NCBI GenBank assembly: GCA_021831595.1
Contig: JAKBMK010000025.1
Coordinates: 1 to 63,113, forward strand
Reading direction: 5' to 3'
DNA from: a bacterium
GTDB lineage: Bacteria > Patescibacteriota > Minisyncoccia > Phycocordibacterales > UBA9973
DNA: 63,113 nucleotides
Shown piece by piece: positions 6,897 to 60,000 of this stretch. Positions within the stretch are counted from its first letter, which is position 1; the number at the start of each line of letters is the position of its first letter. Under the pieces are notes generated by a model, which saw nothing but the letters and a program-made list of their open reading frames with translations, was not told where the DNA came from and did no database searches. The position numbers and the translations under genes are program-made.

Positions 6897-7295
6897 TTAA
6901 TAATTGATAATCTCACTACTTTTAAATGCGACTGATGGAGCACCTTCTTGATACATCATCTGGAACTTCTTCTCTCTATTATTTCCAAATTTATCACTTG
7001 CATCGATTGTCACGACAGAGAATCCAGGAATGAGAGCGATCGTTTCTTTGAATGTGCCATCTTTGTCTATGAATATTTCTCTGCCATTGAGACTTATGTA
7101 TGTAGCATTTGGGGCCTTACCAGTAACTACTGCCACAGGGGAGTCGCCGTTCTTTTCTATCTTTGCATTTATCTGGACTCCGTTCATGAGGAAAGACATC
7201 TTCATGTAGCTGAAAATTCCGATGACAATAAATAAAAGAGTACAAGACGTTAATCCTATCCACCACTTTATATTTTTGTTCTTTATCTCTGTCAT
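6897..7295 (-). CDS. Membrane-anchored hypothetical protein with Ig-like/glucodextranase-B-like segment
   Basis: N-terminal [51 protein letters not shown]. Confidence 0.6.
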
Positions 7296-7300
7296 TTGAA

Positions 7301-7387
7301 TTAGTGATTAGTGATTAGTGATTAGTGATTAGTGATTAGTGATTAGTGATTAGTGATTAGTGATTAGTGATTAGTGATTAGTGATTA
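7301..7387. repeat. Heptanucleotide tandem repeat (TTAGTGA)x~12.4
   Basis: Perfect period-7 repeat directly upstream of the minus-strand gene 6897-7295. Confidence 0.98.
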
Positions 7388-7448
7388 TTCTTAATTATAT
7401 CATATTATACTTGCATTTTACTAGAAACTAGTCACTAGCTACTAGCAC

Positions 7449-10054: not shown

Positions 10055-10861
10055 ATGAATAACCAAAAAGACAACCAAAAGACAGGTTTGAATTCATACG
10101 GACAGTCAAATGTCCTAGACGTAAAAACGTTTGGTAATAAGCATGTTTATGAGTTTGCAAACAAAAAGACAGAGAAGCTCGTAACCGCTCTCTACATGGT
10201 TACAGATTGTATGGATACCGACGATGCACTGAAGGGGAAGTTACGCCAACTAGGAGTAGAATTGCTATCGGACATGTACAAACTTTCAACCCTTTCTCCG
10301 ATGGATAAACACATGCATTTGGGTGCCTCAATGTCGCGAGTAGATGAGATACTTTCGTTCGTAGAAATAGCCTACACAATCGGATTCATCTCAGAGATGA
10401 ATACGATGATATTGAAGAAAGAATTTATGATCCTGATAGGGGAGCTCGAGAGTCATCAGAAGAAGGACAAACACTTCACATTTACACTCGACGAAGAGAT
10501 GTTCTCTCTACCAGTTTTGCCAGAAGAAAATATCTCGAATAATGGAAATAATTTGGTAAAGGACAAAAGGACAAACTTCAACAATATGTCCTATACAAAT
10601 CCTGCATTGAGACATTCCATAAACCAAACACCAACAACCAAAAACCATATTCATTCTGTCTCTGATAAGAAAGAAAGAACTGACAAAATTCTTGCCTTGA
10701 TAAAGGACAAAGAAGTTTCCATAAAGGACATCTCAATTGCTTTCACGGACTGCTCAGAAAAGACAATCCAACGCGAACTGAACTCTCTCGTCGCAAAAGG
10801 ACAAATAAAGAAAACTGGATCCAAACGTTGGTCCCGCTACAAGTTAGTGGCTAGTAATTAG
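10055..10861 (+). CDS. DNA-binding protein with C-terminal winged-helix (DeoR-like) domain
   Basis: DKILALIKDKEVSIKDISIAFTDCSEKTIQRELNSLVAKGQIKKTGSKRWSRYKL. Confidence 0.65.
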   Translation: MNNQKDNQKTGLNSYGQSNVLDVKTFGNKHVYEFANKKTEKLVTALYMVTDCMDTDDALKGKLRQLGVELLSDMYKLSTLSPMDKHMHLGASMSRVDEILSFVEIAYTIGFISEMNTMILKKEFMILIGELESHQKKDKHFTFTLDEEMFSLPVLPEENISNNGNNLVKDKRTNFNNMSYTNPALRHSINQTPTTKNHIHSVSDKKERTDKILALIKDKEVSIKDISIAFTDCSEKTIQRELNSLVAKGQIKKTGSKRWSRYKLVASN

Positions 10862-10880
10862 TGATTAGTGACTAGTATTA

Positions 10881-10915
10881 AGCCCCCGAAAGCTTCGCTT
10901 TCGGGGGTGTGTTTT
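10881..10915 (+). terminator. Terminator
   Basis: CCCCCGAAAGC-TTC-GCTTTCGGGGGTGTGTTTT. Confidence 0.8.
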
Positions 10916-10924
10916 ATTGTATTT

Positions 10925-11036
10925 TTTTCTAAAACCTAGTCACTCACTGCTAATCACTGCCCATTAATCACTAGCTACTAGCCCCTAATCTTGAGCCCCA
11001 TACTAGTCACTATTCACTAGCTACTAGAAGCTAATC
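10925..11036. repeat. Degenerate CTAGTCACTAATCACTAGCTACTAG repeat tract
   Basis: Multiple TAGTCAC/TAATCAC/TAGCTAC units, related to the 7301 heptamer array and the tract in the 23S intron. Confidence 0.7.
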
Positions 11037-11122
11037 TTTTGGCCCACTTATCCACACCCTTATAGCATAAGGGCTTGCATATAAATGCCCCCCATTATAT
11101 AATCTTATTGTATATTAGTGTA

Positions 11123-13746: not shown

Positions 13747-15816
13747 ATGAATAAGTTTCTAAAATTATGCTTACTGGCACTTGCTATCACTCCACTCATA
13801 CCAGATAATACGATTTTTACCCCAGAGAATAGTATCTTTTTTATGAGGACTATTTTGGTAATAATTGGTGTTATATTTTTAATAGGGTTTGTTTCATTAA
13901 AAGATTTTCGAACATCAATATCAGAAAGAATAAAGATATTTACTAGAAATCCTCTTTTTGTGTCTTTGGGATTATTTGTCTTATTTTTTACAATAAGTAC
14001 TATATTTGCATCAGATAAATATATAGCACTTTGGAGTAATACTGATCGCTTCGAAGGGCTGGTGGGGATTATGTATCTATTTTGTTTTTCAATTTTTTCT
14101 TTACTTATTTTCAAAAAGGAGGATTATTTTGATTTTTTTAAGTTAAGCCTTTTTGTTTCTTTCATCGTTTTAATTAAAGAATTTTCAGAATCATTCAGCG
14201 GAGCAGTTCGTCCCGATTCGTTTATCGGTAATCCTACCTTCCTTGCCGGATATTTACTCTTTTCAATTTTCTGTTCAATATTGGTATTCAAGGAGACAAA
14301 GAATAATTTCTTCAAATATTTCTCTGTCTTGATTTCTACTCTATCTATTATAGGTATCTTCCTTACACAAACGCGAGGGACTCTTTTAGGACTTGTCGCC
14401 GGAGTTGTCGCTCTCTTGTTCTATGGGGCTATCAAAGGAAGGGGTGTGTCTTTGAATAAACGGAAAATAAATAAACTATCCGTTATTATTCTATGTATAA
14501 TTTTTGTATCCTCTAGTATTTTTATTGCTACTCGCAAGAATGAAGTTTGGCAAAAAGTTCCAGGTTTATCGCGTGTTGCCCAGATAAGTAGTGAAGATAA
14601 TACAACCAAGACCAGATTGATAATGGGTCAGATAAGTATGAAGGCAGTGAACCCAAAGGAAGAGGGGATGAAGAAGTTTCTAATAGGTTGGGGGCCAGAA
14701 AATTTTAGTCTGGCTTATGCAAAATATTTTAATCCAGTTCAATTTAAATATGAAGTTGGTTGGTTTGATAGGTCTCATAATAGACTACTCGATGTATTAG
14801 TTATGACTGGGCTTTTAGGACTTTTGGCCTATCTTTCTATATGGTTTTTATTTTTTAAATTTATTTTTAAGACGAAAGGATTCTCCATTTTAAATATTGG
14901 CCTGATATTTTTTGGAGTTTCTCTTTTTGTTCATTTACTGTTTGTTTTTGACCAGATTACCACATCGGTACCATTTTTCATTGTGCTAGCCTTCTCTATT
15001 TACTTAATAGAGTCAGATAAATTTAAAGAGATTGAAACAAAAAAGAAGATTCACAAGGAAGTCAAAGACAACCTAGTAATTGCAATGGATGTTATATTCT
15101 TAATACAGATTTTGTTTATTGGTTTTGCTTATTTTAAGAATGATTTACCTGCCTTTATCCAAATAAAAGAATATGGTATCTTAAGAAAAGATAGTGAAAT
15201 CAGTAATATTTTACAAAATATAAACACAGTATTTGATCCATTTACATCTGCCCAGATGAGGATTAGATATGATTTTATGGGTTTTATTTCTAAGAATTAT
15301 GATGAGAAAAATGAGAAGATTAAAAAGTTATCAGATATTTCATTAAATAGAGCTGTAGAATATACAAAAAAAGTTCCTTTAGATTTACAATTTTCCAATT
15401 ATTTAGGATTAACATATGTCAATCAAGGTATAGCTACAAACGATTTAGAGAATTATAAAAAAGCTGAAGAAATTTTTAATAGGAATCTTGTTTATGCTCC
15501 AAATAAGTTAGATTTTAATTATGGTTTAGCTGTTAGTTGGTTCTATCAGAAGCGTTATGATGAAGCTTTCAGTAAATTTGAACAAATTTTTGATTTATCT
15601 CCAAGCTATTTTCAACAGAAAGAAGGGAAGGGACCTGAGAAGATTTATACCATGTTTATAAAATACTTTTATGATAAAAGAGACAAGACCAATTTTGTAA
15701 AGACGGCTAAGCGTTTGAAAGACAATGGTTTTGCTAATAGTCAGATCCTAGATCAAATAATCTCAATTATTGACGAGACTGGTACTTGGCCGTATATTAA
15801 TTTCAAAAATGACTGA
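13747..15816 (+). CDS. O-antigen ligase/polymerase family membrane protein with C-terminal TPR-like region
   Basis: Multiple TMs, ISTIFASDKYIALWSNTDRFEGL, GRG/WGPENF...SHNRLLDVLVMTGLLGLLAYL. Confidence 0.85.
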   Translation: MNKFLKLCLLALAITPLIPDNTIFTPENSIFFMRTILVIIGVIFLIGFVSLKDFRTSISERIKIFTRNPLFVSLGLFVLFFTISTIFASDKYIALWSNTDRFEGLVGIMYLFCFSIFSLLIFKKEDYFDFFKLSLFVSFIVLIKEFSESFSGAVRPDSFIGNPTFLAGYLLFSIFCSILVFKETKNNFFKYFSVLISTLSIIGIFLTQTRGTLLGLVAGVVALLFYGAIKGRGVSLNKRKINKLSVIILCIIFVSSSIFIATRKNEVWQKVPGLSRVAQISSEDNTTKTRLIMGQISMKAVNPKEEGMKKFLIGWGPENFSLAYAKYFNPVQFKYEVGWFDRSHNRLLDVLVMTGLLGLLAYLSIWFLFFKFIFKTKGFSILNIGLIFFGVSLFVHLLFVFDQITTSVPFFIVLAFSIYLIESDKFKEIETKKKIHKEVKDNLVIAMDVIFLIQILFIGFAYFKNDLPAFIQIKEYGILRKDSEISNILQNINTVFDPFTSAQMRIRYDFMGFISKNYDEKNEKIKKLSDISLNRAVEYTKKVPLDLQFSNYLGLTYVNQGIATNDLENYKKAEEIFNRNLVYAPNKLDFNYGLAVSWFYQKRYDEAFSKFEQIFDLSPSYFQQKEGKGPEKIYTMFIKYFYDKRDKTNFVKTAKRLKDNGFANSQILDQIISIIDETGTWPYINFKND

Positions 15817-16348
15817 AAGACTTTTTAAATTAATAGAAAAAATAGTTCCAAATAAATGGCATTGGGTTCTTCAGCATGAAGGGCACAAGAGGTACTTTGC
15901 GAATATGAGCTGGATGTTCGGAGGGCAGATGTTCTCGCTTCTCGTTTCTTTCTTCATTGGTGCCTGGGTTGCTCGCTATCTGGGTCCAGAGAATTACGGA
16001 GTACTGAACTATTCTATTGCATTTGTAGGAATATTTGGATTTATCGCTACACTGGGGATAGATAGTATTCTGAACAGGGAACTTGTTAAGACTCCTGAAA
16101 GAAAGGAAGAATTGCTAGGGACATCCTTCCTTTTGAAATTAATAGGTGGAGCTATCGCGTTCTCTCTAGCAATACTAAGTGTATTGATATTTCAATCCGA
16201 GCCACGAATCAAAATACTCGTGTCGTTGTTCGCTTTTTCTTTTATTTTGCAGTCTGTCAATGTCATAAGTATCTACTTTAATGCCGAAGTAAAGTCAAAG
16301 AATAATGTGAGGGCAAGTATTATTGCGACAATTATTTCATCGATATGA
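15809..16348 (+). pseudogene. Truncated polysaccharide flippase (Wzx/RfbX family)
   Basis: MSWMFGGQMFSLLVSFFIGAWVARYLGPENYGVLNYSIAFVGIFGFIATLGIDSILNREL, then ends abruptly at a repeat; only N-terminal third of the family present. Confidence 0.8.
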
Positions 16349-16352
16349 AATA

Positions 16353-16371
16353 CGCAAGAACCGTTCTTGCG
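16353..16371. repeat. Family-1 palindrome CGCAAGAACCGTTCTTGCG
   Basis: Perfect 9+1+9 palindrome at the junction of two truncated genes. Confidence 0.95.
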
Positions 16372-16388
16372 AAATATTCTTGCGAAAT

Positions 16389-17054
16389 ATGGGGGCCACG
16401 GCTTTGCTTATTATCTGTATTTTCATGTTGGTTTTCTTTGTCTATCTGCCTATGGGCAAGGCCGTCTCCTACAATAAACTTATAAGTATGGGTATTGATG
16501 AACGTCCTAGCTATTACAAAGAATTGCTAGGGGGTTCTTCTGTCGGCAGTACGATAGATGCTAGTAGTATGGCCTCTACTGTATATGCTTATTATGCTGC
16601 CAATTTACCCCAGATCAAGAGCGATGTCAGTATGCGACCATATGTAGAAGCCGACTTAAAGGCTCTGACAGAATATTTGGATGAATTGATTTTAAAAAAT
16701 AATACAGATTTCCGCTTATACATTACCGATGTATTTTTGTACAACACTCTTACTACCTTATCTGAAAGACCTTACGATAAAGCTCTGGCCAACTATTTAT
16801 TTTCATTATTAGAAAAGGCTCACCGCCTTTCCCCGGCCAATCCGGAAGTGTATTGGGCGAGGGCCAACATCTATGCTTGGCAAGGGGATTTGAAATCGGC
16901 AGAGAATGCATACAAAGAAGCCGTCGCCTCAGACAGGGAAGCCCCTGGCTCTTACCGCCTCCTTATAAATTTTGCCAAAGTGGTAAAAAACCAAAAATTG
17001 TACGAAGAAACTCTAAAAGAAGTCCAAAAGCATATACCAGATTTTCAGTATTAA
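16389..17054 (+). pseudogene. C-terminal half (TMs + TPR) of a second O-antigen-ligase-type protein
   Basis: MGATALLIICIFMLVFFVYLPMGKAVSYN...ALANYLFSLLEKAHRLSPANPEVYWARANIYAWQGDLKSAENAYKEAVA; no N-terminal half. Confidence 0.7.
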
Positions 17055-17157: not shown

Positions 17158-18084
17158 ATGAATATAAGGCAAAAACTTGAGATAATTAAGAAAAAATTAG
17201 GATTAACTCAGACAGAATTGGCAGAAAGATTTGGGGTTTCTTTTGTTGCCTTTAATAATTGGTGGCTAGGGAAGTCAATTCCTCGTAAAAAAGCAGAAGC
17301 CCTTATTGAAGATTTATTTTTGGAAGTTACAGGACAAAAAACAATTTCTATTGATAGACTCATAATAAAGAAAGAGAGACTACAAAAGAAATCTCTTGAA
17401 CACAAAAGTATTATAAATGAGATTTTGAATAATAAAGATATCTATGATGAATTTGTTTTAAAGCTTACTTATCATAGTAACAGCATAGAGGGTAGTACTC
17501 TTACAGAAGCTGATACGAAAGCAGTTCTCTTTGATAATGTTGCTTTGCAAAATAAGACATTGATTGAACAGTTGGAAGCAAAAAATCATCAAACGGCCTT
17601 AAATTATCTTTTTGATCATATTTTTAAAAAAAGAGAAATTAATGAAGATTTAATATTAAAACTTCACAGTATTCTTATGAATGGAATTAGACCAGATGCA
17701 GGATTCTATAGGAATCACGGAGTTCGAATTGTAGGAGTTAGCCTACCTACTGCCAATTATATAAGAGTTCCAGAAATAATTAAATCTATTATGATAAGTG
17801 TAAAAGGCATAAATAAAGATATTGTAAGTCTTTCCGCAAATGTGCATAGCCGTTTCGAGCAGGTTCATCCTTTTTCAGATGGGAATGGAAGAATCGGACG
17901 ATTGTTGATGACAGCAATGCTTTTAAAAGCAAACATGGCTCCAGCTGTTATCCATCAACAGCAAAAGCAGCTTTATTATACTTATCTTTATAAATCTCAA
18001 ACAAAAGATGACCAAAGTCAACTTGAGGATTTCTTGTGCGACACAATATTGAGTGGGTTTGATATCTTAGAACGAAATTTCTAA
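17158..18084 (+). CDS. Fic/DOC family protein with N-terminal XRE-type HTH
   Basis: LTQTELAERFGVSFVAFNNWWLG HTH; SNSIEGS inhibitory motif; VHPFSDGNGRIGR Fic motif. Confidence 0.93.
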   Translation: MNIRQKLEIIKKKLGLTQTELAERFGVSFVAFNNWWLGKSIPRKKAEALIEDLFLEVTGQKTISIDRLIIKKERLQKKSLEHKSIINEILNNKDIYDEFVLKLTYHSNSIEGSTLTEADTKAVLFDNVALQNKTLIEQLEAKNHQTALNYLFDHIFKKREINEDLILKLHSILMNGIRPDAGFYRNHGVRIVGVSLPTANYIRVPEIIKSIMISVKGINKDIVSLSANVHSRFEQVHPFSDGNGRIGRLLMTAMLLKANMAPAVIHQQQKQLYYTYLYKSQTKDDQSQLEDFLCDTILSGFDILERNF

Positions 18085-18225: not shown

Positions 18226-18250
18226 ATGCGCAAGGACCGTCCTTGCGCAT
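18226..18250. repeat. Family-1 palindrome variant ATGCGCAAGGACCGTCCTTGCGCAT
   Basis: Perfect palindrome; differs from CGCAAGAACCGTTCTTGCG by a compensatory pair. Confidence 0.95.
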
Positions 18251-24862: not shown

Positions 24863-24938
24863 ATAAAACAAAAACATAGCAAGAATCGTTTTTGCTACAA
24901 CTTACTACAATTTTTGACATTTTGGGGGAGAAATGACT

Positions 24939-24957
24939 CGCAAGAACCGTTCTTGCG
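24939..24957. repeat. Family-1 palindrome CGCAAGAACCGTTCTTGCG
   Basis: Perfect copy immediately 5' of the RAYT gene. Confidence 0.97.
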
Positions 24958-24981
24958 AAAGGAAAACGAGATTGATATAAT
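24953..24981 (+). promoter_or_regulatory. RAYT-1 promoter overlapping its palindrome
   Basis: TTGCGA (24953-24958, right arm of palindrome) - 17 bp - TGA-TATAAT (24976-24981). Confidence 0.6.
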
Positions 24982-24987
24982 TAAATT

Positions 24988-25674
24988 ATGTTGAGAAAAG
25001 ATCCATTTATTACTGGTGAGTACTATCATATATATAACAGAGGAATAGACAAAAGAAATATATTTAAACTAGAAAGAGATTATGAGAGATTCATGATGCT
25101 TTTGTATGTTTCTAATTCTACTAATGAAAATTCTTTACGATTAGATGATCTTTTAAATAAACAGCATAAAAGTTTTAAAGAAGTTTTGATTTTAGATAAA
25201 GGTAAGCCACTAGTTTCTATAGGTGCTTGGTGTCTTATGACCAACCATTTTCATTTATTAGTTAGGCAAGAGGTAGACGGAGGGATAACTAAATTTATGA
25301 GAAAAGTGGGGGTAGGGTATTCAATGTTTTTTAATATTAAATATCATAGGCAGGGAGCCTTGTTTGGGGGGCTCTTCAAATCTAAATTAATTGGTAAGAA
25401 TGATAATTATTTAAAAATGCTTTTGGCATATATTCATTTAAATTCACTTGAGATAAATTTCCCAGATTTAGAAAATAAAAAAGGGGAGTATAAAGAGGAT
25501 GAAATGAAAGAATTTTTGGATTCATATCGGTATTCTAGTTATAGGGATTATATGGGAATTAATAGAACAGAGAAGAGTATTTTAAACAGAGAATCTTTCC
25601 CGGAATATTTTCATACAGATCAATCCTTCATTGAATTTGTGGAGAATTTTTATCTTTATAAACAACAGCACTAA
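24988..25674 (+). CDS. REP-associated tyrosine transposase (IS200-like Y1_Tnp, RAYT-1)
   Basis: GEYYHIYNRGIDKRNIF; ...IGAWCLMTNHFHLLVRQEVDGGITKFMRKVGVGYSMFFN (HUH motif NHFHLL); LAYIHLNSLE. Confidence 0.92.
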   Translation: MLRKDPFITGEYYHIYNRGIDKRNIFKLERDYERFMMLLYVSNSTNENSLRLDDLLNKQHKSFKEVLILDKGKPLVSIGAWCLMTNHFHLLVRQEVDGGITKFMRKVGVGYSMFFNIKYHRQGALFGGLFKSKLIGKNDNYLKMLLAYIHLNSLEINFPDLENKKGEYKEDEMKEFLDSYRYSSYRDYMGINRTEKSILNRESFPEYFHTDQSFIEFVENFYLYKQQH

Positions 25675-25752
25675 TCTTTCTAACCTTTCGCAAGAACCGT
25701 TCTTGCGACAAAAATCTTTCTAACCTTTCGCAAGAACCGTTCTTGCGACAAA
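25673..25752. repeat. Two direct copies of a ~40-bp unit containing the family-1 palindrome
   Basis: AATCTTTCTAACCTTTCGCAAGAACCGTTCTTGCGACAAA repeated; palindromes at 25689-25707 and 25729-25747. Confidence 0.95.
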
Positions 25753-25856
25753 GTTCTTGCGACAAATAAAAAGAAAAGGGCTCCTTAGGTAGTTAACCGT
25801 TCGGATCTCTCTTCGTATTGATATGGGTATTATATATCTTTGTGGTGCTACGGACT

Positions 25857-25875
25857 CGCAAGAACCGTTCTTGCG
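25857..25875. repeat. Family-1 palindrome CGCAAGAACCGTTCTTGCG
   Basis: Perfect copy, followed by partial CTTGCGACAA. Confidence 0.97.
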
Positions 25876-25890
25876 ACAATCTTGCGACAA

Positions 25891-25940
25891 CAAAGGCAAG
25901 ACCTTTGCACGGACAGCAAATTGCAAAGGTCTTGCCTTTG
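25891..25940. repeat. REPIN-like doublet (family 2), left copy
   Basis: CAAAGGCAAGACCTTTG-CACGGACAGCAAATTG-CAAAGGTCTTGCCTTTG; exact reverse complement of 27001-27050. Confidence 0.97.
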
Positions 25941-26906: not shown

Positions 26907-27000
26907 TCTAGTGCGTTGTTGTTCTACTCATTCTTAATATTCTTTGGCAAACATATCAGCATTCTAGCATAAATAAAGGGCATACGGCAGGGTAAAGCCA

Positions 27001-27050
27001 CAAAGGCAAGACCTTTGCAATTTGCTGTCCGTGCAAAGGTCTTGCCTTTG
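27001..27050. repeat. REPIN-like doublet (family 2), right copy
   Basis: CAAAGGCAAGACCTTTGCAATTTGCTGTCCGTGCAAAGGTCTTGCCTTTG. Confidence 0.97.
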
Positions 27051-27082: not shown

Positions 27083-27129
27083 TAATCGTATCATAATGAT
27101 ACGATTAGAGCATATAAATGATACGATTA
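27083..27129. promoter_or_regulatory. Operator of second Fic gene
   Basis: 25-nt palindrome TAATCGTATCATAATGATACGATTA (27083-27107) plus third half-site ATGATACGATTA (27118-27129) just before ATG. Confidence 0.75.
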
Positions 27130-27134
27130 AATAT

Positions 27135-28187
27135 ATGAGGGATATGAGTAAAAGACAAATTAATATATTAGAAAAGTTTCCAGAAGAAGGGAAGATTTCA
27201 TCTTCCGATATTTTAAAAATTTTAGGAGAGAAAGTGTCCTTAATTACGATCAAAAGAGATTTAGAGAGTTTGGTTGTACTAAAGTATTTAGAGAGAAAAG
27301 GAAAGGGTAGATCTACTGTATATGAAAAGACTACCTTAGGAATGTTGCTATCCCCAGTAGATGCTTCCAAGTATAACGCAGTAGACCCCGATGTTCGGAA
27401 TGGAAGAGATAGTTTTAATTTTTCTCTGTTTGAAAATTTTCCTAAAGATGTCTTCATGAGTGATGAAAAAGAATCTCTAGATAATGCGACAAAAAAATAT
27501 CAAAAAAATATTAAAAATATAAGTCAGACAGTACAGTTTAAAGAATTAGAGAGGTTTGTCATAGAACTGTCTTGGAAGTCTTCAAAAATTGAAGGGAACA
27601 CATACACCTTGCTAGATACAGAGAAGCTTATCCGTGAAGGCATTCCCGGAGAAGGACGTACCAAAGATGAAACGACGATGATACTTAATCATAAAAAAGC
27701 TTTTTCTTTTATTATGGATAATCTGGGTGACTTGCATAAAAATGGTGTCAACCTAAAATTCATAGAAAAAGTTCACGAATTACTGACTTCTGGACTAGGG
27801 GTTTCAAGGGGTATCAGGAATGGTTTAGTGGGTGTTATCGGTACTAAATACAAACCACTTGATAATAAGTATCAGATAAATGAAGCGCTAGAGACTCTTT
27901 ATAAGAGAGTGAATCAAATGCAGAATGTGTACAGTAAGGCTTTAACTCTACTTGTTGGAATTTCATATATCCAACCCTTTGAAGATGGGAACAAAAGGAC
28001 TGCTCGTTTGCTTTGCAATGCTATCCTTTTGTCTTTAAAGTGTGCTCCATTGTCGTATCGCAGTGTAGATGAGAATAATTATAGGGAATCCATTCTTGTT
28101 TTTTATGAGAAAAATTCTTTGGTGCCAATGAAAAAAATATTTATAGATCAATATATTTTTTCAACGGAGAACTACTTAGTTAAGTAG
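27135..28187 (+). CDS. Fic-fold protein with N-terminal winged helix and degenerate catalytic motif
   Basis: wHTH RQINILEKFPEEGKISSSDILKILG; SSKIEGNT inhibitory-type motif; YIQPFEDGNKRTAR where catalytic His is Gln. Confidence 0.88.
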   Translation: MRDMSKRQINILEKFPEEGKISSSDILKILGEKVSLITIKRDLESLVVLKYLERKGKGRSTVYEKTTLGMLLSPVDASKYNAVDPDVRNGRDSFNFSLFENFPKDVFMSDEKESLDNATKKYQKNIKNISQTVQFKELERFVIELSWKSSKIEGNTYTLLDTEKLIREGIPGEGRTKDETTMILNHKKAFSFIMDNLGDLHKNGVNLKFIEKVHELLTSGLGVSRGIRNGLVGVIGTKYKPLDNKYQINEALETLYKRVNQMQNVYSKALTLLVGISYIQPFEDGNKRTARLLCNAILLSLKCAPLSYRSVDENNYRESILVFYEKNSLVPMKKIFIDQYIFSTENYLVK

Positions 28188-28248: not shown

Positions 28249-28254
28249 TATTTT

Positions 28255-28461
28255 CTAATGCGTAAAGATTATTATTATCGTCCTTAGTATTATCCCAAAG
28301 TCGATGAAGATATTTCTATTTTTTATATAATACAAATCATACTCAAATTTTTCTTTTGAGCTCTCGATCGTGTTTGCATAGCGGTACTTGATCTGGGCCC
28401 AGCCGGTGAATCCTGGGCGGATGATATGGCGGAGGTTGTAGTGGGGGATGGTCTCGGACAT
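28255..28461 (-). pseudogene. C-terminal fragment of polyprenyl glycosylphosphotransferase
   Basis: IPHYNLRHIIRPGFTGWAQIKYRYANTIESSKEKFEYDLYYIKNRNIFIDFGIILRTIIIIFTH nearly identical to the end of 29421-30734. Confidence 0.9.
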
Positions 28462-28519
28462 ATGGGTATTCTAGCATAAATAAGGGGGATACGGCAGGGC
28501 AGAGCAGGGTAGCACTCTG

Positions 28520-28561
28520 CAAAGGTCTTGCCTTTGTCGATGCGCAAGGACGGTCCTTGCG
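28520..28561. repeat. Family-2 palindrome followed by family-1 variant palindrome
   Basis: CAAAGGTCTTGCCTTTG then CGCAAGGACGGTCCTTGCG (28543-28561). Confidence 0.9.
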
Positions 28562-28681: not shown

Positions 28682-28712
28682 TCGATGCGCAAGGACCGTC
28701 CTTGCGCATCGA
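28682..28712. repeat. Family-1 variant palindrome TCGATGCGCAAGGACCGTCCTTGCGCATCGA
   Basis: 31-nt perfect palindrome around one central base. Confidence 0.95.
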
Positions 28713-28814: not shown

Positions 28815-29309
28815 ATGGATATGGATGTGAAAAAAGTAAATATTTATATAGATGGGAACAATCTTTATCGTTCAGCAAAAGAGCTCGGTTATGAAATAGA
28901 TTATAAAAAGTTTAGAGTGTGGTTATCTCAAAAATATAATACAAAAAATATATTTCTTTTTATTGGATATTTAGAAAATAGGAAAGATTTTTATAATCAT
29001 TTGAAAAATTGTGGTTTTAATTTGATATTTAAGGAAGCTATTCTTCATGAAGGAAATATTAAAGGTAATTGTGACGCTGAATTAGTATTAAAATCAGTTG
29101 ATGATTATCATTTGAAAAACTTTGATAAATTTATATTGATTTCAAATGATGGTGATTTTGGATGTTTAATAGAATTTTTAATAAATAAAAATTGTTTTGA
29201 TATTATACTATCACCTGATATAAGTAAATGTTCTATATTGTTAAGAAATAAAACAAATAAGATTTTATATTTAAACGAAATTTATAAGAAATTTTCTAAA
29301 AGCAAGTAA
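28815..29309 (+). CDS. NYN/PIN-like domain protein (LabA/DUF88 family)
   Basis: VNIYIDGNNLYRSAKELG...GNCDAELVLKSVDDYHLKNFDKFILISNDGDFGCLIEFL. Confidence 0.85.
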   Translation: MDMDVKKVNIYIDGNNLYRSAKELGYEIDYKKFRVWLSQKYNTKNIFLFIGYLENRKDFYNHLKNCGFNLIFKEAILHEGNIKGNCDAELVLKSVDDYHLKNFDKFILISNDGDFGCLIEFLINKNCFDIILSPDISKCSILLRNKTNKILYLNEIYKKFSKSK

Positions 29310-29420
29310 ATTACTTATCCCAAAAGAAAAAGCTCCCGGCATGGGCGCACCCATACAAGGATCTCTTTCATAATGATATAGGTATTATATACCAACGTGA
29401 CACCAGTGTCAAGACTATTT

Positions 29421-30734
29421 CTAATGCGTAAAGATTATTATTATCGTTCGTAATATTATTCCGAAATCGATGAAGATATTTCTGTTCTTTATATAATATA
29501 AATCGTATTCAAACTTTTCTTTTGAATCTTCGATTGTATTTGCATAGCGGTATTTTATTTGAGCCCAGCCGGTGAATCCTGGGCGGATGATGTGGCGGAG
29601 ATTGTAGTGGGGGATCTTGCCTTCGAGAGGAGTGACGAATTCTGGGCGCTCTGGACGGGGACCGACGAGCGAAAGATCGCCACGGAGTATATTTATCATT
29701 TGCGGAATTTCGTCGATGTGGAGCTTGCGGATGACTCTGCCGACCCGAGTGACACGAGGGTCGGATGCTCCTGTGGCCCAGACGGCGCCATCCTTCTCGG
29801 CGTTTATCGTCATAGAGCGAAGCTTGTAAAGCCTGAATATATTGCCATTGAGTCCAACTCTATTTTGAGTATAGAAGATTGGACCTTTGTCGTTTAGATA
29901 TATGAACACTCCACTGACAAGCAATATAGGTGAGCAGAGTACTAGTATGATGATAGCGAACAACTTATTCACAATAAACGTCATTATATTGTAGGCGACG
30001 TCTTTCTTTATATTTATATTCTCTACAACGAAAGACATATCGATATACCCAACAGGAATTTTGAATAGATATTTCTCATAAGCTTTGGCTGTGTCGATGA
30101 TGGAGCATCCTTGCTTGTATAGTTCCAAAATCTTTTCGTCTGGAGAGTCTATTTTCTTGTCTAGGATTATCACCAAATTTTTTGTAATTTTCTCTACTGA
30201 CTTCATCTCATTCATACTGTCTAGATGACTTACGATCGAGAGCCCGATCTGAGGATTTGCTTTTATCGTATTCTCTAATTCTTTCAGATAAGTAGAAGTC
30301 CCGACGAGAATTACCGGCTGTGTTATGCCCTTGGCGAAAAGGGTATAGATAGTTCTACGAAAGAAGAAAGAAAAGAAACCGAACAGAACGACCTGGATCA
30401 AGAGGTTCATCTTTGGATAAATACCGAATATAGGGGCTAGGTAGAATAGGATCAAGCCGACGACGAAGGAGGAGGCCAGGGCTAGGGCCCATCTCTTCAT
30501 ATAGGGGATAGTAGGCTTTATCGTCACCAAGTCATATAGTCCAAATATATAGAAAATAAGCACCCAGATGAGATATAGGAGGAGGAATGGCACAGTATGA
30601 CTGTCGATAGCAGAAAGGTACTGGTCGGGAGAGAATCTTATGAAAATAAGCAATATAAAAGAGATGAGAAAAGATAGAAAATCTCCGAATATGATAAGCC
30701 AAGTTCTATTCGTCATATGAAGACATTCTAGCAC
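29421..30734 (-). CDS. Undecaprenyl-phosphate sugar phosphotransferase (WbaP/EpsL-type)
   Basis: GPIFYTQNRVGLNGNIFRLYKLRSMTINAEKDGAVWATGASDPRVTRVGRVIRKLHIDEIPQMINILRGDLSLVGPRPERPEF. Confidence 0.95.
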   Translation of the reverse strand: MLECLHMTNRTWLIIFGDFLSFLISFILLIFIRFSPDQYLSAIDSHTVPFLLLYLIWVLIFYIFGLYDLVTIKPTIPYMKRWALALASSFVVGLILFYLAPIFGIYPKMNLLIQVVLFGFFSFFFRRTIYTLFAKGITQPVILVGTSTYLKELENTIKANPQIGLSIVSHLDSMNEMKSVEKITKNLVIILDKKIDSPDEKILELYKQGCSIIDTAKAYEKYLFKIPVGYIDMSFVVENINIKKDVAYNIMTFIVNKLFAIIILVLCSPILLVSGVFIYLNDKGPIFYTQNRVGLNGNIFRLYKLRSMTINAEKDGAVWATGASDPRVTRVGRVIRKLHIDEIPQMINILRGDLSLVGPRPERPEFVTPLEGKIPHYNLRHIIRPGFTGWAQIKYRYANTIEDSKEKFEYDLYYIKNRNIFIDFGIILRTIIIIFTH

Positions 30735-42767: not shown

Positions 42768-42778
42768 TAATTTTAGTT

Positions 42779-42820
42779 CTGCAAAGGTCTTGCCTTTGCG
42801 CAAAGGCAAGACCTTTGCAG
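42779..42820. repeat. 42-bp perfect palindrome (family 2 doublet, zero spacer) upstream of folD
   Basis: CTGCAAAGGTCTTGCCTTTGCGCAAAGGCAAGACCTTTGCAG. Confidence 0.98.
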
Positions 42821-57596: not shown

Positions 57597-58283
57597 ATGG
57601 CACACCAAGGCAATGCGTGGGATAGGGAATACAGGAATCCACTACTAGTGACTAAGAATGATGGTCCGCAAAAAGACACTTTGCGATTTTTGAAGTATCT
57701 GAAAAAAGTAGAGAAGTATAGAGTGGAAGAAAAGAATATTCTGGATCTTGGTTGTGGCACAGGCAGGAATTCAAATTATTTAGCAGATTTATACAATAAA
57801 GTTATTGGCATAGAAATATCAAAGACAGCCTTAGATATTGCGAAAACTCGCGCACACAACATGGGCGTGTCTGTAGACTATAGACTAGGGGATATAGGGG
57901 AGAAGTATGATATACCAGATAATTCTATCGATGTAGTACTAGATATCACATCTTCGAATTCTCTTGATGAAAAAGGAAGAGAAGTTTACTTGGAAGAGGT
58001 ACAGAGAGTAATGAAAAAAGGTGGGTACTTTTTTGTCCGGGCGCTTTGTAAAGACGGCAATCAGAATGTGAAGAATCTCCTCAAGATGAGCCCCGGCAAG
58101 GAATATGATACTTATATAATGAAAGATATAGGACTTACAGAGCGCGTATTCTCTAGGACTGATTTCTTGGCTATGTATGGCAAATATTTTAAAATTTTGA
58201 ATTTAGAAAAGAAAACAAGTTATACTACTTTCAATAATCGTATCTACAAACGCGATTACTGGCTCGCTTATATGCAGAAGTAG
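57597..58283 (+). CDS. Class I SAM-dependent methyltransferase
   Basis: NILDLGCGTGRNSNYLADLYNKVIGIEISKTALDIA. Confidence 0.88.
   Translation: MAHQGNAWDREYRNPLLVTKNDGPQKDTLRFLKYLKKVEKYRVEEKNILDLGCGTGRNSNYLADLYNKVIGIEISKTALDIAKTRAHNMGVSVDYRLGDIGEKYDIPDNSIDVVLDITSSNSLDEKGREVYLEEVQRVMKKGGYFFVRALCKDGNQNVKNLLKMSPGKEYDTYIMKDIGLTERVFSRTDFLAMYGKYFKILNLEKKTSYTTFNNRIYKRDYWLAYMQK
58239..58282 (+). repeat. 44-bp direct repeat, left copy (3' end of methyltransferase)
   Basis: CGTATCTACAAACGCGATTACTGGCTCGCTTATATGCAGAAGTA, identical to 59957-60000. Confidence 0.97.
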
Positions 58284-58295
58284 TATGAGTAAAAC

Positions 58296-58323
58296 AGAGT
58301 AAGGCAAGACCTTACTCTGTTTT
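58296..58323. repeat. RAYT-2 palindrome, copy A
   Basis: AACAGAGTAAGG-CAAGA-CCTTACTCTGTT. Confidence 0.97.
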
Positions 58324-59213
58324 TGTTTTGTAGTTTTGTATGAAAATACCTACAAATATAAACAATAGTCCAATAATAGAAGATATTAAAATGGTTTCGT
58401 GGAGCAGGAAATATATATAAACAAGAGAGAAGAATGGGGTTAAGAAAGCAATGTTTGCTATTTTTGCTGTATCTCCATATTTGAGAGCAAGAAACCATAA
58501 AAGAAAAGCTCCTCCACTCGTAAATATTCCAGTCCAAATAAGGCCTAGGATTTGCATCCCCTCAATTTTAGGAATAAAACTAAATGAAGTTACTGCTATC
58601 AATGTAAAAATAAAAGTAAATAAATAGTAAAAAAACATACTGGTCGTCTTGTCGTAATTTTGTCTTTTTCCTAGAACAGAGAATAATCCATATGACATAG
58701 CCGCTATAATTGCGAATATTACACCAATAGGTTTTTCAAAATGTAGTTGTTGCAGATTGCCTTGGGTTGCAATAATTATGACTCCTATAAAAGAAAAAAT
58801 AACAGCCAGTATTTTTTTATAAGTAAATTTTTCTCCCAATATTGGAATAGCAAATAAAACTATCATAATGGGCCATAAATAGTTAATAACGAAAGCTTCT
58901 TGAGCCTTTAGATAAGAGATGGCTATATATAAAAATAGATAATAAATAAAAACACCCACGAATCCCATATAAATAAAACGCCAATAATCTTTTAATCCAT
59001 AGGATTTTATTATCGAGATTTTTTCTGTATTAAAACAATTATGAATAAACTTAGTGATGCGAAAAATGAAGCGAAAAGTAAAATTTGTAGACTATTTAAA
59101 TTTTTTAATAACAGTTTTACTACTGCGGCAGTAGATCCCCATAAAAGGGTAGCTGACAGTGCATATATGTATGCTTTGTTCATGATGTAGATTATAACAT
59201 AGAATGTTTTCAA
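58312..59213 (-). pseudogene. EamA/DMT-family transporter, apparently frameshifted
   Basis: Two collinear ORFs (59213-59010 and 58968-58312); intervening +1 frame IIKSYGLKDYWRFIY bridges them. Confidence 0.75.
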
Positions 59214-59215
59214 TA

Positions 59216-59244
59216 TAACAGAGTAAGGTCTTGCCTTACTCTGT
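59216..59244. repeat. RAYT-2 palindrome, copy B (opposite orientation)
   Basis: ACAGAGTAAGG-TCTTG-CCTTACTCTGT. Confidence 0.97.
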
Positions 59245-59258
59245 CGGAGGAATATAAT
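59231..59258 (+). promoter_or_regulatory. RAYT-2 promoter overlapping its palindrome
   Basis: TTGCCT (59231-59236, loop/right arm of palindrome) - 16 bp - TATAAT (59253-59258). Confidence 0.6.
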
Positions 59259-59265
59259 GTAATAT

Positions 59266-59931
59266 ATGTCTTTAAGAAAAGTTAATTTTGTAAAAGGAGA
59301 ATATTATCACATTTATAATCGCGGAAATAGTAAACAGAAAATATTTCATGATAAATATGATTATTTTCATTTTGTGAAATTAATGTTTATTTGCAACAAT
59401 ATAGATAATGTAAGAATTTTTAATGATGATCGGTATGGCATTAATGTATTTGATAGAGAGGTAGAGAATATTGTATCTATTGGAGCATATTGTTTAATGC
59501 CGAATCACTTTCATATATTAATTACAGAAAAAATGGAAAGTGGCATAAGTAAGTTTATGCAAAAATTATCAACTGCGTATTCTATGTATTACAATAAAAA
59601 ACATAATCACACGGGTGGATTATTTGAAGGGAAGTTTAAGTCTGTGCATATTGATGGAGATATTCAGATGAAATATTTGTTTTCGTATATTCATTTGAAT
59701 CCAATAAAACTAATATATAAAGATTGGAAAGAATTTGGTATCAAAGATAAAAAACAAGCATTAGATTATCTAGGGGAATATGATTATTCTAGTTATAAAG
59801 ATTTTATATTAAATGAAAGAATACAAAGTAAAATACTAAATATTAAAGATTTTCCCAATTATTTTCATATTAAAGAAAAGTTTCAGAAAGAGATAATTGA
59901 ATGGTTGTCTTTTAAAGACAAAACAGAGTAA
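59266..59931 (+). CDS. REP-associated tyrosine transposase (Y1_Tnp, RAYT-2)
   Basis: FVKGEYYHIYNRGNSKQKIFHDKYDYFHFVKLM; SIGAYCLMPNHFHILITEKMESGISKFMQKLSTAYSMYYNKKHNHTGGLFEGKFKS. Confidence 0.93.
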   Translation: MSLRKVNFVKGEYYHIYNRGNSKQKIFHDKYDYFHFVKLMFICNNIDNVRIFNDDRYGINVFDREVENIVSIGAYCLMPNHFHILITEKMESGISKFMQKLSTAYSMYYNKKHNHTGGLFEGKFKSVHIDGDIQMKYLFSYIHLNPIKLIYKDWKEFGIKDKKQALDYLGEYDYSSYKDFILNERIQSKILNIKDFPNYFHIKEKFQKEIIEWLSFKDKTE

Positions 59932-59951
59932 GGCAAGACCTTACTCTGTTT
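59922..59951. repeat. RAYT-2 palindrome, copy C
   Basis: AACAGAGTAAGG-CAAGA-CCTTACTCTGTT at the 3' end of RAYT-2. Confidence 0.97.
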
Positions 59952-59956
59952 ATAAC

Positions 59957-60000
59957 CGTATCTACAAACGCGATTACTGGCTCGCTTATATGCAGAAGTA
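59957..60000 (+). repeat. 44-bp direct repeat, right copy
   Basis: Identical to 58239-58282; non-coding remnant of the methyltransferase 3' end. Confidence 0.97.

What the first reader, a model, noticed from the sequence alone, without database searches (positions are those of the whole stretch)
24939..25875. RAYT-1 with its own palindrome family: a REP/RAYT system in a CPR-like genome
The Y1 transposase at 24988-25674 (HUH motif NHFHLL) has a perfect CGCAAGAACCGTTCTTGCG palindrome 5' (24939) and three more just 3' (25689, 25729, 25857). A further exact copy lies at 16353 and compensatory variants CGCAAGGACCGTCCTTGCG or CGCAAGGACGGTCCTTGCG lie at 18229, 28543 and 28688. The paired substitution (A:T to G:C) preserves the stem, as expected if the hairpin is what is recognised. 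All eight copies fall within 16.3-28.7 kb, i.e. the polysaccharide locus.
Basis: partly seen in the sequence, partly recalled or inferred. Interest (0 to 1): 0.72.

Follow-up and report, generated by a model that had tools for sequence, protein, structure and literature searches.

The report
Transposase genes bracketed by matched hairpins

Summary
In detail: eight exact palindromes where chance gives 0.03. The RAYT link is supported. RAYT-1 is bracketed by them (24939, 25689). Most RAYT relatives (78 of 95, against 2 of 165 other genes) are also bracketed by a matched palindrome pair. Palindromes occur in 28/29 genomes with a RAYT-1-like gene but 6/47 without any RAYT.

Corrections:
- The "compensatory variants" (18229, 28543, 28688) carry the GATGCGC…GCGCATC arms of a second RAYT on contig C24, so they belong to that element, not RAYT-1.
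- The family is not confined to the polysaccharide locus (copies on C24, C30, C18) and is low-copy.
- The REP-defining GT[AG]G foot is absent.

Best reading: a Patescibacteria branch of hairpin-bracketed Y1 HUH transposase elements. The apex is clade-specific; the arms vary but match left to right. The left hairpin supplies the −35 box of the RAYT promoter. Some insertions are flanked by 18–57-nt direct repeats, and palindromes acquire half-hairpin "ladders". Recognition, cleavage and mobility are inferred, not shown. Novelty: new variant of a known kind.

The parts
24988..25674 (+). RAYT-1: Y1 HUH transposase, 228 aa, catalytic motifs present (NHFH at residues 86-89, Tyr148)
   Evidence: Pfam Y1_Tnp above cut-off; H87, H89 and Y148 invariant in 21 relatives; AlphaFold model pLDDT 90.4 whose best PDB match is E. 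coli TnpA-REP bound to a REP hairpin, 4er8
24938..24958 (.). left palindrome of RAYT-1, TCGCAAGAACCGTTCTTGCGA, 29 nt 5' of the ATG
   Evidence: same place in nearly all class A elements
24953..24981 (+). predicted RAYT-1 promoter: TTGCGA (in the 3' arm of the left palindrome), 17 nt, TATAAT with TG before it, then 6 nt to ATG
   Evidence: 10 of 12 consensus; spacing conserved across elements
25688..25708 (.). right palindrome of RAYT-1, 13 nt after the stop codon
25713..25752 (+). tandem copy of the 40-bp right-end unit 25673-25712 (contains palindrome 25729-25747)
   Evidence: family D4, 100% identical
25753..25766 (+). half-hairpin ladder unit GTTCTTGCGACAAA next to palindrome 25729-25747
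25857..25890 (.). palindrome 25857-25875 followed by ladder unit TCTTGCGACAA (25880-25890)
24877..24897 (.). degenerate copy TAGCAAGAATCGTTTTTGCTA
16353..16389 (.). solo palindrome of the A type plus ladder unit TTCTTGCGAAATA; sits where a Polysacc_synt flippase gene is truncated
18226..18250 (.). solo palindrome ATGCGCAAGGACCGTCCTTGCGCAT with the arms of the C24 RAYT
28543..28561 (.). solo palindrome CGCAAGGACGGTCCTTGCG, left arm GATG as in the C24 RAYT
28682..28712 (.). solo palindrome TCGATGCGCAAGGACCGTCCTTGCGCATCGA, arms identical over 29 nt to the C24 RAYT's left palindrome (up to the centre base)
59266..59931 (+). RAYT-2, a class B Y1 transposase (38% identical to RAYT-1 in the alignment) with its own different palindrome
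59218..59244 (.). left palindrome of RAYT-2, ACAGAGTAAGGTCTTGCCTTACTCTGT
59923..59949 (.). right palindrome of RAYT-2, the inverted copy
58294..58320 (.). third copy of the RAYT-2 palindrome, outer left end of the inserted block
58234..60000 (+). 49-nt direct repeat (58234-58282 and 59952-60000, one mismatch) of the methyltransferase 3' end flanking the inserted palindrome-DMT-palindrome-RAYT-2-palindrome block
   Evidence: family D12; methyltransferase and murI adjacent without the element in several relatives

Best explanation
RAYT-1 is one member of a large Patescibacteria group of Y1 HUH transposase elements, each a single transposase gene between two matched terminal hairpins. Most likely the protein binds its own hairpin as single-stranded DNA, reading mainly the apex (AGRACNGTYCT for RAYT-1's clade, AGGYCTTGCCT for RAYT-2's) and using the arms as structure only, and it nicks near the hairpin foot to move the element and, occasionally, a lone palindrome. 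Shown by sequence comparison: the bracketing, the clade-specific apex, the free but left-right-matched arms, the promoter placed in the left hairpin, the ladders, and the flanking direct repeats. Inferred: binding, nicking, mobilisation, and self-repression when the protein covers the -35 box in its own hairpin. In the window, RAYT-1 owns the A-type copies (24939, 25689, 25729, 25857, probably 16353); the G-type copies are strays of the C24 element.
For: Bracketing: 78 of 95 RAYTs against 2 of 165 other genes, both of those lying next to a RAYT's own palindrome. Apex follows the protein tree: RAC group 11 changes against 27.1 shuffled, class B 8 against 25.7, 0 of 500 shuffles as low. Arms: left-right identity inside an element 0.97 (A) and 0.97 (B) against 0.63 and 0.34 after shuffling, p <= 5e-4; R:Y pair 67 A:T, 40 G:C, 2 other. 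Copy number tracks the RAYT: median 5 palindromes in 29 genomes with a RAYT-1-like gene, median 0 in 47 without any RAYT, p = 2e-13. Same arrangement in Nomura-, Zambryski-, Taylor- and Colwellbacteria and in 15 of 29 loci drawn across the phylum. Fold: best PDB match 4er8, E = 5e-5, then IS608 and ISDra2 TnpA. Promoter: palindrome centre to TATAAT is 27-29 nt in 21 of 26 class A and 21-23 nt in 24 of 35 class B elements with a good -10, both equal to TTGCNN-17 nt-TATAAT, with 6-7 nt to the ATG in all class A. Ladders: 31 of 124 class A palindromes against 4 of 124 control hairpins, p = 7e-7. Empty site: methyltransferase-murI adjacent in several relatives, split by the RAYT-2 block here. Flanking direct repeats in 7 of 76 elements against 0 of 453 mismatched flank pairs.
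Against: No binding, cleavage or transposition has been shown. Solo palindromes exist in some genomes without a RAYT (6 of 47; G139 has 6 copies), so they can persist alone. About a fifth of RAYTs have no matched pair by my search. Only one clear empty site was examined. The flanking repeats could come from recombination or import of a homologous stretch, and ladders could be replication slippage at hairpins. Pairs were chosen by apex similarity, so arm matching, though measured mostly outside the apex, shares one column per side with the selection. The protein tree was a quick one with some long branches.
Confidence: 0.75

Rival explanations
1. A classical REP/RAYT system: RAYT-1 spreads one REP family, of which the A and G forms are both members.
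For: HUH transposase related in fold to TnpA-REP, inverted palindromes on both sides, scattered solo copies, inverted doublets of class B palindromes in the window that resemble REPINs.
Against: No GT[AG]G foot (7 of 62, 0 of 60, chance 6.8%). About 13 copies, not the more than 100 typical of REPs. The G copies carry the arms of another RAYT. The NCBI REP-RAYT equivalog model is matched only at 23.6 bits against a cut-off of 80.
Confidence: 0.12
2. An IS200/IS605-type insertion sequence: the whole hairpin-gene-hairpin unit moves by peel-and-paste and lone palindromes are only relics of dead copies.
For: Two hairpin ends around one Y1 gene, scattered positions, related genomes with an empty site; IS608 and ISDra2 TnpA among the structural matches; a lone RAYT-2 palindrome in front of murI in G044, where RAYT-2 lies here.
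Against: Tyr motif YIHLN(P/S), not the Y---Q of IS200 TnpA (PMC6006769); copies in one genome are mostly diverged from each other; flanking direct repeats of 18-57 nt at some insertions, whereas IS200/IS605 make none; no guide-like tetranucleotide conserved at the foot.
Confidence: 0.1
3. Palindromes are transcription terminators or operators of the flanking genes, and the link to RAYT is incidental.
For: Some score as terminator-like; many right palindromes overlap or abut the RAYT stop codon; the left one overlaps the promoter.
Against: Left palindrome lies upstream of the gene; other genes are not bracketed this way (2 of 165); copy number tracks RAYT presence; obvious terminators in the window have other sequences and T tracts.
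Confidence: 0.03

Closest known systems
REPtrons: TnpA-REP (RAYT) genes with REP sequences (Escherichia, Stenotrophomonas, Marinomonas; PMC8266576, PMC2817692, PMC6006769)
   Same: Y1 HUH protein with the TnpA-REP fold; gene flanked by inverted hairpins; each transposase with its own palindrome family; solo copies in the genome.
   Different: No GT[AG]G foot, low copy number, perfect palindromes whose apex is clade-typical, promoter -35 inside the left hairpin, half-hairpin ladders.
TIRYT / TIRtron and TnpA-Y1 subclass 2.1 (RAYT group 1; PMC3733652, PMC6006769)
   Same: Protein length (about 230 aa), NH[YF]H and YIHLNP motifs, and a C-terminal extension; inverted repeats without the GTAG foot.
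   Different: Described TIRs are long repeats with a GGGGWSAS motif and subclass 2.1 was reported to lack REP-like hairpins; here the repeats are short self-complementary hairpins. I did not build the subclass profile, so assignment rests on motifs.
IS200/IS605 insertion sequences (IS608, ISDra2)
   Same: Y1 HUH catalytic core; hairpin at each end of the element.
   Different: Tyr motif, absence of tnpB, diverged copies, identical hairpins at both ends, flanking direct repeats at some sites.
REPINs (PMC3116915)
   Same: Class B palindromes in the window occur as inverted doublets (25891-25940, 27001-27050, 42773-42819).
   Different: Few copies, no GTRG foot; the RAYT with matching arms was not found in this genome.

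Membership tests
Y1 HUH transposases (TnpA-Y1 superfamily) | Y1_Tnp domain with HUH motif and one catalytic tyrosine | tested here: met
   Pfam PF01797 above cut-off; NHFH and Tyr148 conserved; fold matches 4er8, IS608, ISDra2
REP/RAYT (REPtron) | gene flanked by inverted palindromes present elsewhere in the genome | tested here: met
REP/RAYT (REPtron) | conserved GT[AG]G tetranucleotide at the hairpin foot | tested here: not met
   7 of 62 class A feet and 0 of 60 class B feet, chance 6.8%; no conserved flanking bases
REP/RAYT (REPtron) | high copy number, usually over 100 | tested here: not met
   13 copies with up to 2 mismatches in this genome; 4-28 in 15 relatives
REP/RAYT (REPtron) | NCBIfam REP_Tyr_transpos equivalog score | tested here: not met
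   23.6 bits against a cut-off of 80
REP/RAYT (REPtron) | protein binds and nicks its own hairpin as single strand | not testable with these tools
   needs biochemistry
TIRYT / TnpA-Y1 subclass 2.1 | motifs NH[YF]H and Y[IV]HLNP, about 238 aa | tested here: met
   (RAYT-1 itself has YIHLNS; most relatives YIHLNP); motif values from PMC6006769
TIRYT / TnpA-Y1 subclass 2.1 | terminal inverted repeats with the GGGGWSAS motif | tested here: not met
   the terminal repeats are self-complementary hairpins with other apexes
TIRYT / TnpA-Y1 subclass 2.1 | place in the TnpA-Y1 tree | not tested
   no reference set of the 12 subclasses was available here
IS200/IS605 | Tyr motif Y---Q | tested here: not met
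   YIHLN(P/S)
IS200/IS605 | insertion without target duplication | tested here: inconclusive
   direct repeats of 18-57 nt flank 7 of 76 elements and 49 nt flank the RAYT-2 block; the others show none

The most novel reading that the evidence does not exclude
These are a distinct kind of Y1 HUH transposon: the transposase recognises the hairpin apex only, so arms drift and are re-matched left to right, and insertion proceeds through a replicative or template-switching step that duplicates roughly 20-60 nt of target and leaves half-hairpin ladders, unlike the conservative peel-and-paste of IS200/IS605 and unlike known REPtrons.
Probability: 0.25. Interest if true: 0.75.

Novelty: new variant of a known kind. 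Interest (0 to 1): 0.58.

Why it matters
How TnpA-REP proteins pick and spread their hairpins is an open question studied on three model pairs. Here a phylum of small genomes offers dozens of natural transposase-hairpin pairs in which apex and arms vary separately, which makes apex-only recognition directly testable. The literature searched here holds no account of REP/RAYT-like elements in Patescibacteria. The palindromes may also explain some rearrangement junctions in a polysaccharide locus of a host-attached lineage.

Tried and rejected
Viral origin: no relative of RAYT-1 in IMG/VR. Sequence search of PDB, single and profile: no hit; only the fold search connected it to 4er8. Terminator reading: rejected as the main explanation because the left copy is upstream of the gene and ordinary genes lack the bracketing. 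A conserved foot or target tag beside the hairpin: none found. Two near-identical elements in G143 (L084) first looked like transposition, but their right flanks are homologous, so they are more likely a segmental duplication. The idea that the short ORF at 16392-17051 is a copy of the neighbouring O-antigen ligase's C terminus was not supported.

Full report
Observation. The ORF at 24988-25674 is a Y1 transposase. The window is contig C32, bases 1-63113, of an 807-kb genome in 33 contigs. The records named for its close relatives are Candidatus Nomurabacteria and related Patescibacteria. Genome-wide there are 13 copies with up to two mismatches: eight in the window, three on C24, two on C30.

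Whose palindromes they are. The genome holds five Y1 genes. One, at C24:20348-21013, is 68% identical to RAYT-1 and is bracketed by CGATGCGCAAGGACGGTCCTTGCGCATCG. The three G-type copies in the window carry the same GATGCGC...GCGCATC arms, in full or in part, while RAYT-1's own copies do not. So the A and G forms are two element families, not one family recognised by RAYT-1. RAYT-2 at 59266-59931 is bracketed by a third palindrome with a different apex, and the C20 and C31 genes by a fourth and a fifth.

A general arrangement. I collected 95 RAYT genes from the GTDB family of this genome. 78 have palindromes with matching centres on both sides; only 2 of 165 other genes do, and both lie next to a RAYT's palindrome. 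Class A genes (like RAYT-1) have apex AGRACNGTYCT, class B genes (like RAYT-2) mostly AGGYCTTGCCT. The apex follows the protein tree. The arms outside the apex differ between elements but match between the two ends of one element: 0.97 identity against 0.63 and 0.34 for shuffled pairs. The same bracketing is seen in Zambryski-, Taylor- and Colwellbacteria and in about half of 29 loci drawn from the whole phylum.

With GCAAGRACSGTYCTTGC and one mismatch, 28 of 29 genomes with a RAYT-1-like gene hold the palindrome (median 5 copies), 33 of 71 with other RAYTs only (median 0), and 6 of 47 with no RAYT (median 0); p = 2e-13 for the first against the last. The hypothesis survives. The exceptions show that palindromes can outlast their RAYT.

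Promoter in the hairpin. In class A elements the distance from palindrome centre to a TATAAT-like box is 27-29 nt in 21 of 26, with 6-7 nt from that box to the ATG. In class B the distance is 21-23 nt in 24 of 35. Both place a TTGCNN hexamer of the palindrome 17 nt from the -10 box; for RAYT-1 the scan finds TTGCGA-17-TATAAT with a TG before it. The transcript would start at or next to the start codon. That the protein represses itself by covering the -35 box is my inference. When several -10 candidates scored alike my script preferred those near 26 nt, a mild bias; the constant gap to the ATG is independent of it.

Ladders. 31 of 124 class A palindromes are followed, on the outside, by partial copies made of half the hairpin plus a few flanking bases; 4 of 124 control hairpins are (p = 7e-7), and 6 of 65 class B. 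Examples in the window are 25753-25766, 25880-25890 and 16377-16389. Inner breakpoints lie mostly within 4 nt of the palindrome centre. This suggests repeated breakage at the hairpin tip and near the foot; whether the transposase or replication does it is unknown.

Insertion. The methyltransferase and murI genes are adjacent in several relatives without any element. Here they are separated by palindrome, DMT-family gene, palindrome, RAYT-2, palindrome, and the last 49 nt of the methyltransferase gene are repeated on the far side. Of 76 elements tested, 7 (leaving out two that reflect palindrome copies) are flanked by direct repeats of 18-57 nt, against 0 of 453 mismatched flank pairs. Known IS200/IS605 elements insert without duplication, so this is either a different insertion step or the result of later recombination; I cannot decide between them.

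Protein. The AlphaFold model is confident (pLDDT 90.4). Its best match in the PDB is E. coli TnpA-REP with a REP hairpin, 4er8 (E = 5e-5), followed by IS608 and ISDra2 transposases. Sequence searches of the PDB found nothing. Motifs and length fit the published subclass 2.1 (RAYT group 1), which was reported to lack REP-like hairpins (PMC6006769); the formal tree placement was not done.

Verdict. I file it as a new variant of a known kind.

Noticed in passing
window 25891-25940, 27001-27050, 42773-42819; single at 28517-28536: Class B palindromes CAAAGG(CAAGA/TCTTG)CCTTTG occur as inverted doublets resembling REPINs; no RAYT with these arms was found in the genome.
   Followed up: partly
window 15809-16389: A flippase gene (Polysacc_synt, profile positions 3-149 of 274) ends abruptly at the solo palindrome 16353; a TPR-containing fragment follows at 16392-17051. 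Looks like a palindrome at a rearrangement junction.
   Followed up: partly
window 28252-28449 and 29418-29615: 198-nt copy (88%) of the 3' end of a sugar-transferase gene next to palindromes 28517 and 28543; a 48-nt copy of 26951-26998 lies beside it at 28458-28505.
   Followed up: no
L192, L195, L198 (G053, G059, G065), between methyltransferase and murI: Different RAYT elements occupy the same intergenic spot in three relatives, one of them with a third apex type: an insertion hot spot or one old insertion with changing hairpins.
   Followed up: partly
L208 (G044:C1:29344-29370): The exact 27-nt RAYT-2 palindrome lies alone upstream of murI in a relative without RAYT there; further lone copies in G045, G062 and G063.
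   Followed up: partly
window 17158-18084 and about 27084-28187: Two Fic-family genes (Pfam) and a NYN-domain gene (28815-29309) sit beside the palindromes in the polysaccharide locus.
   Followed up: no
window 7286-7397: Tandem array of the 7-nt unit ATTAGTG, with related scattered TAGTGA/CTAGTCACTA sequences near 10843-11046 and 39231.
   Followed up: no
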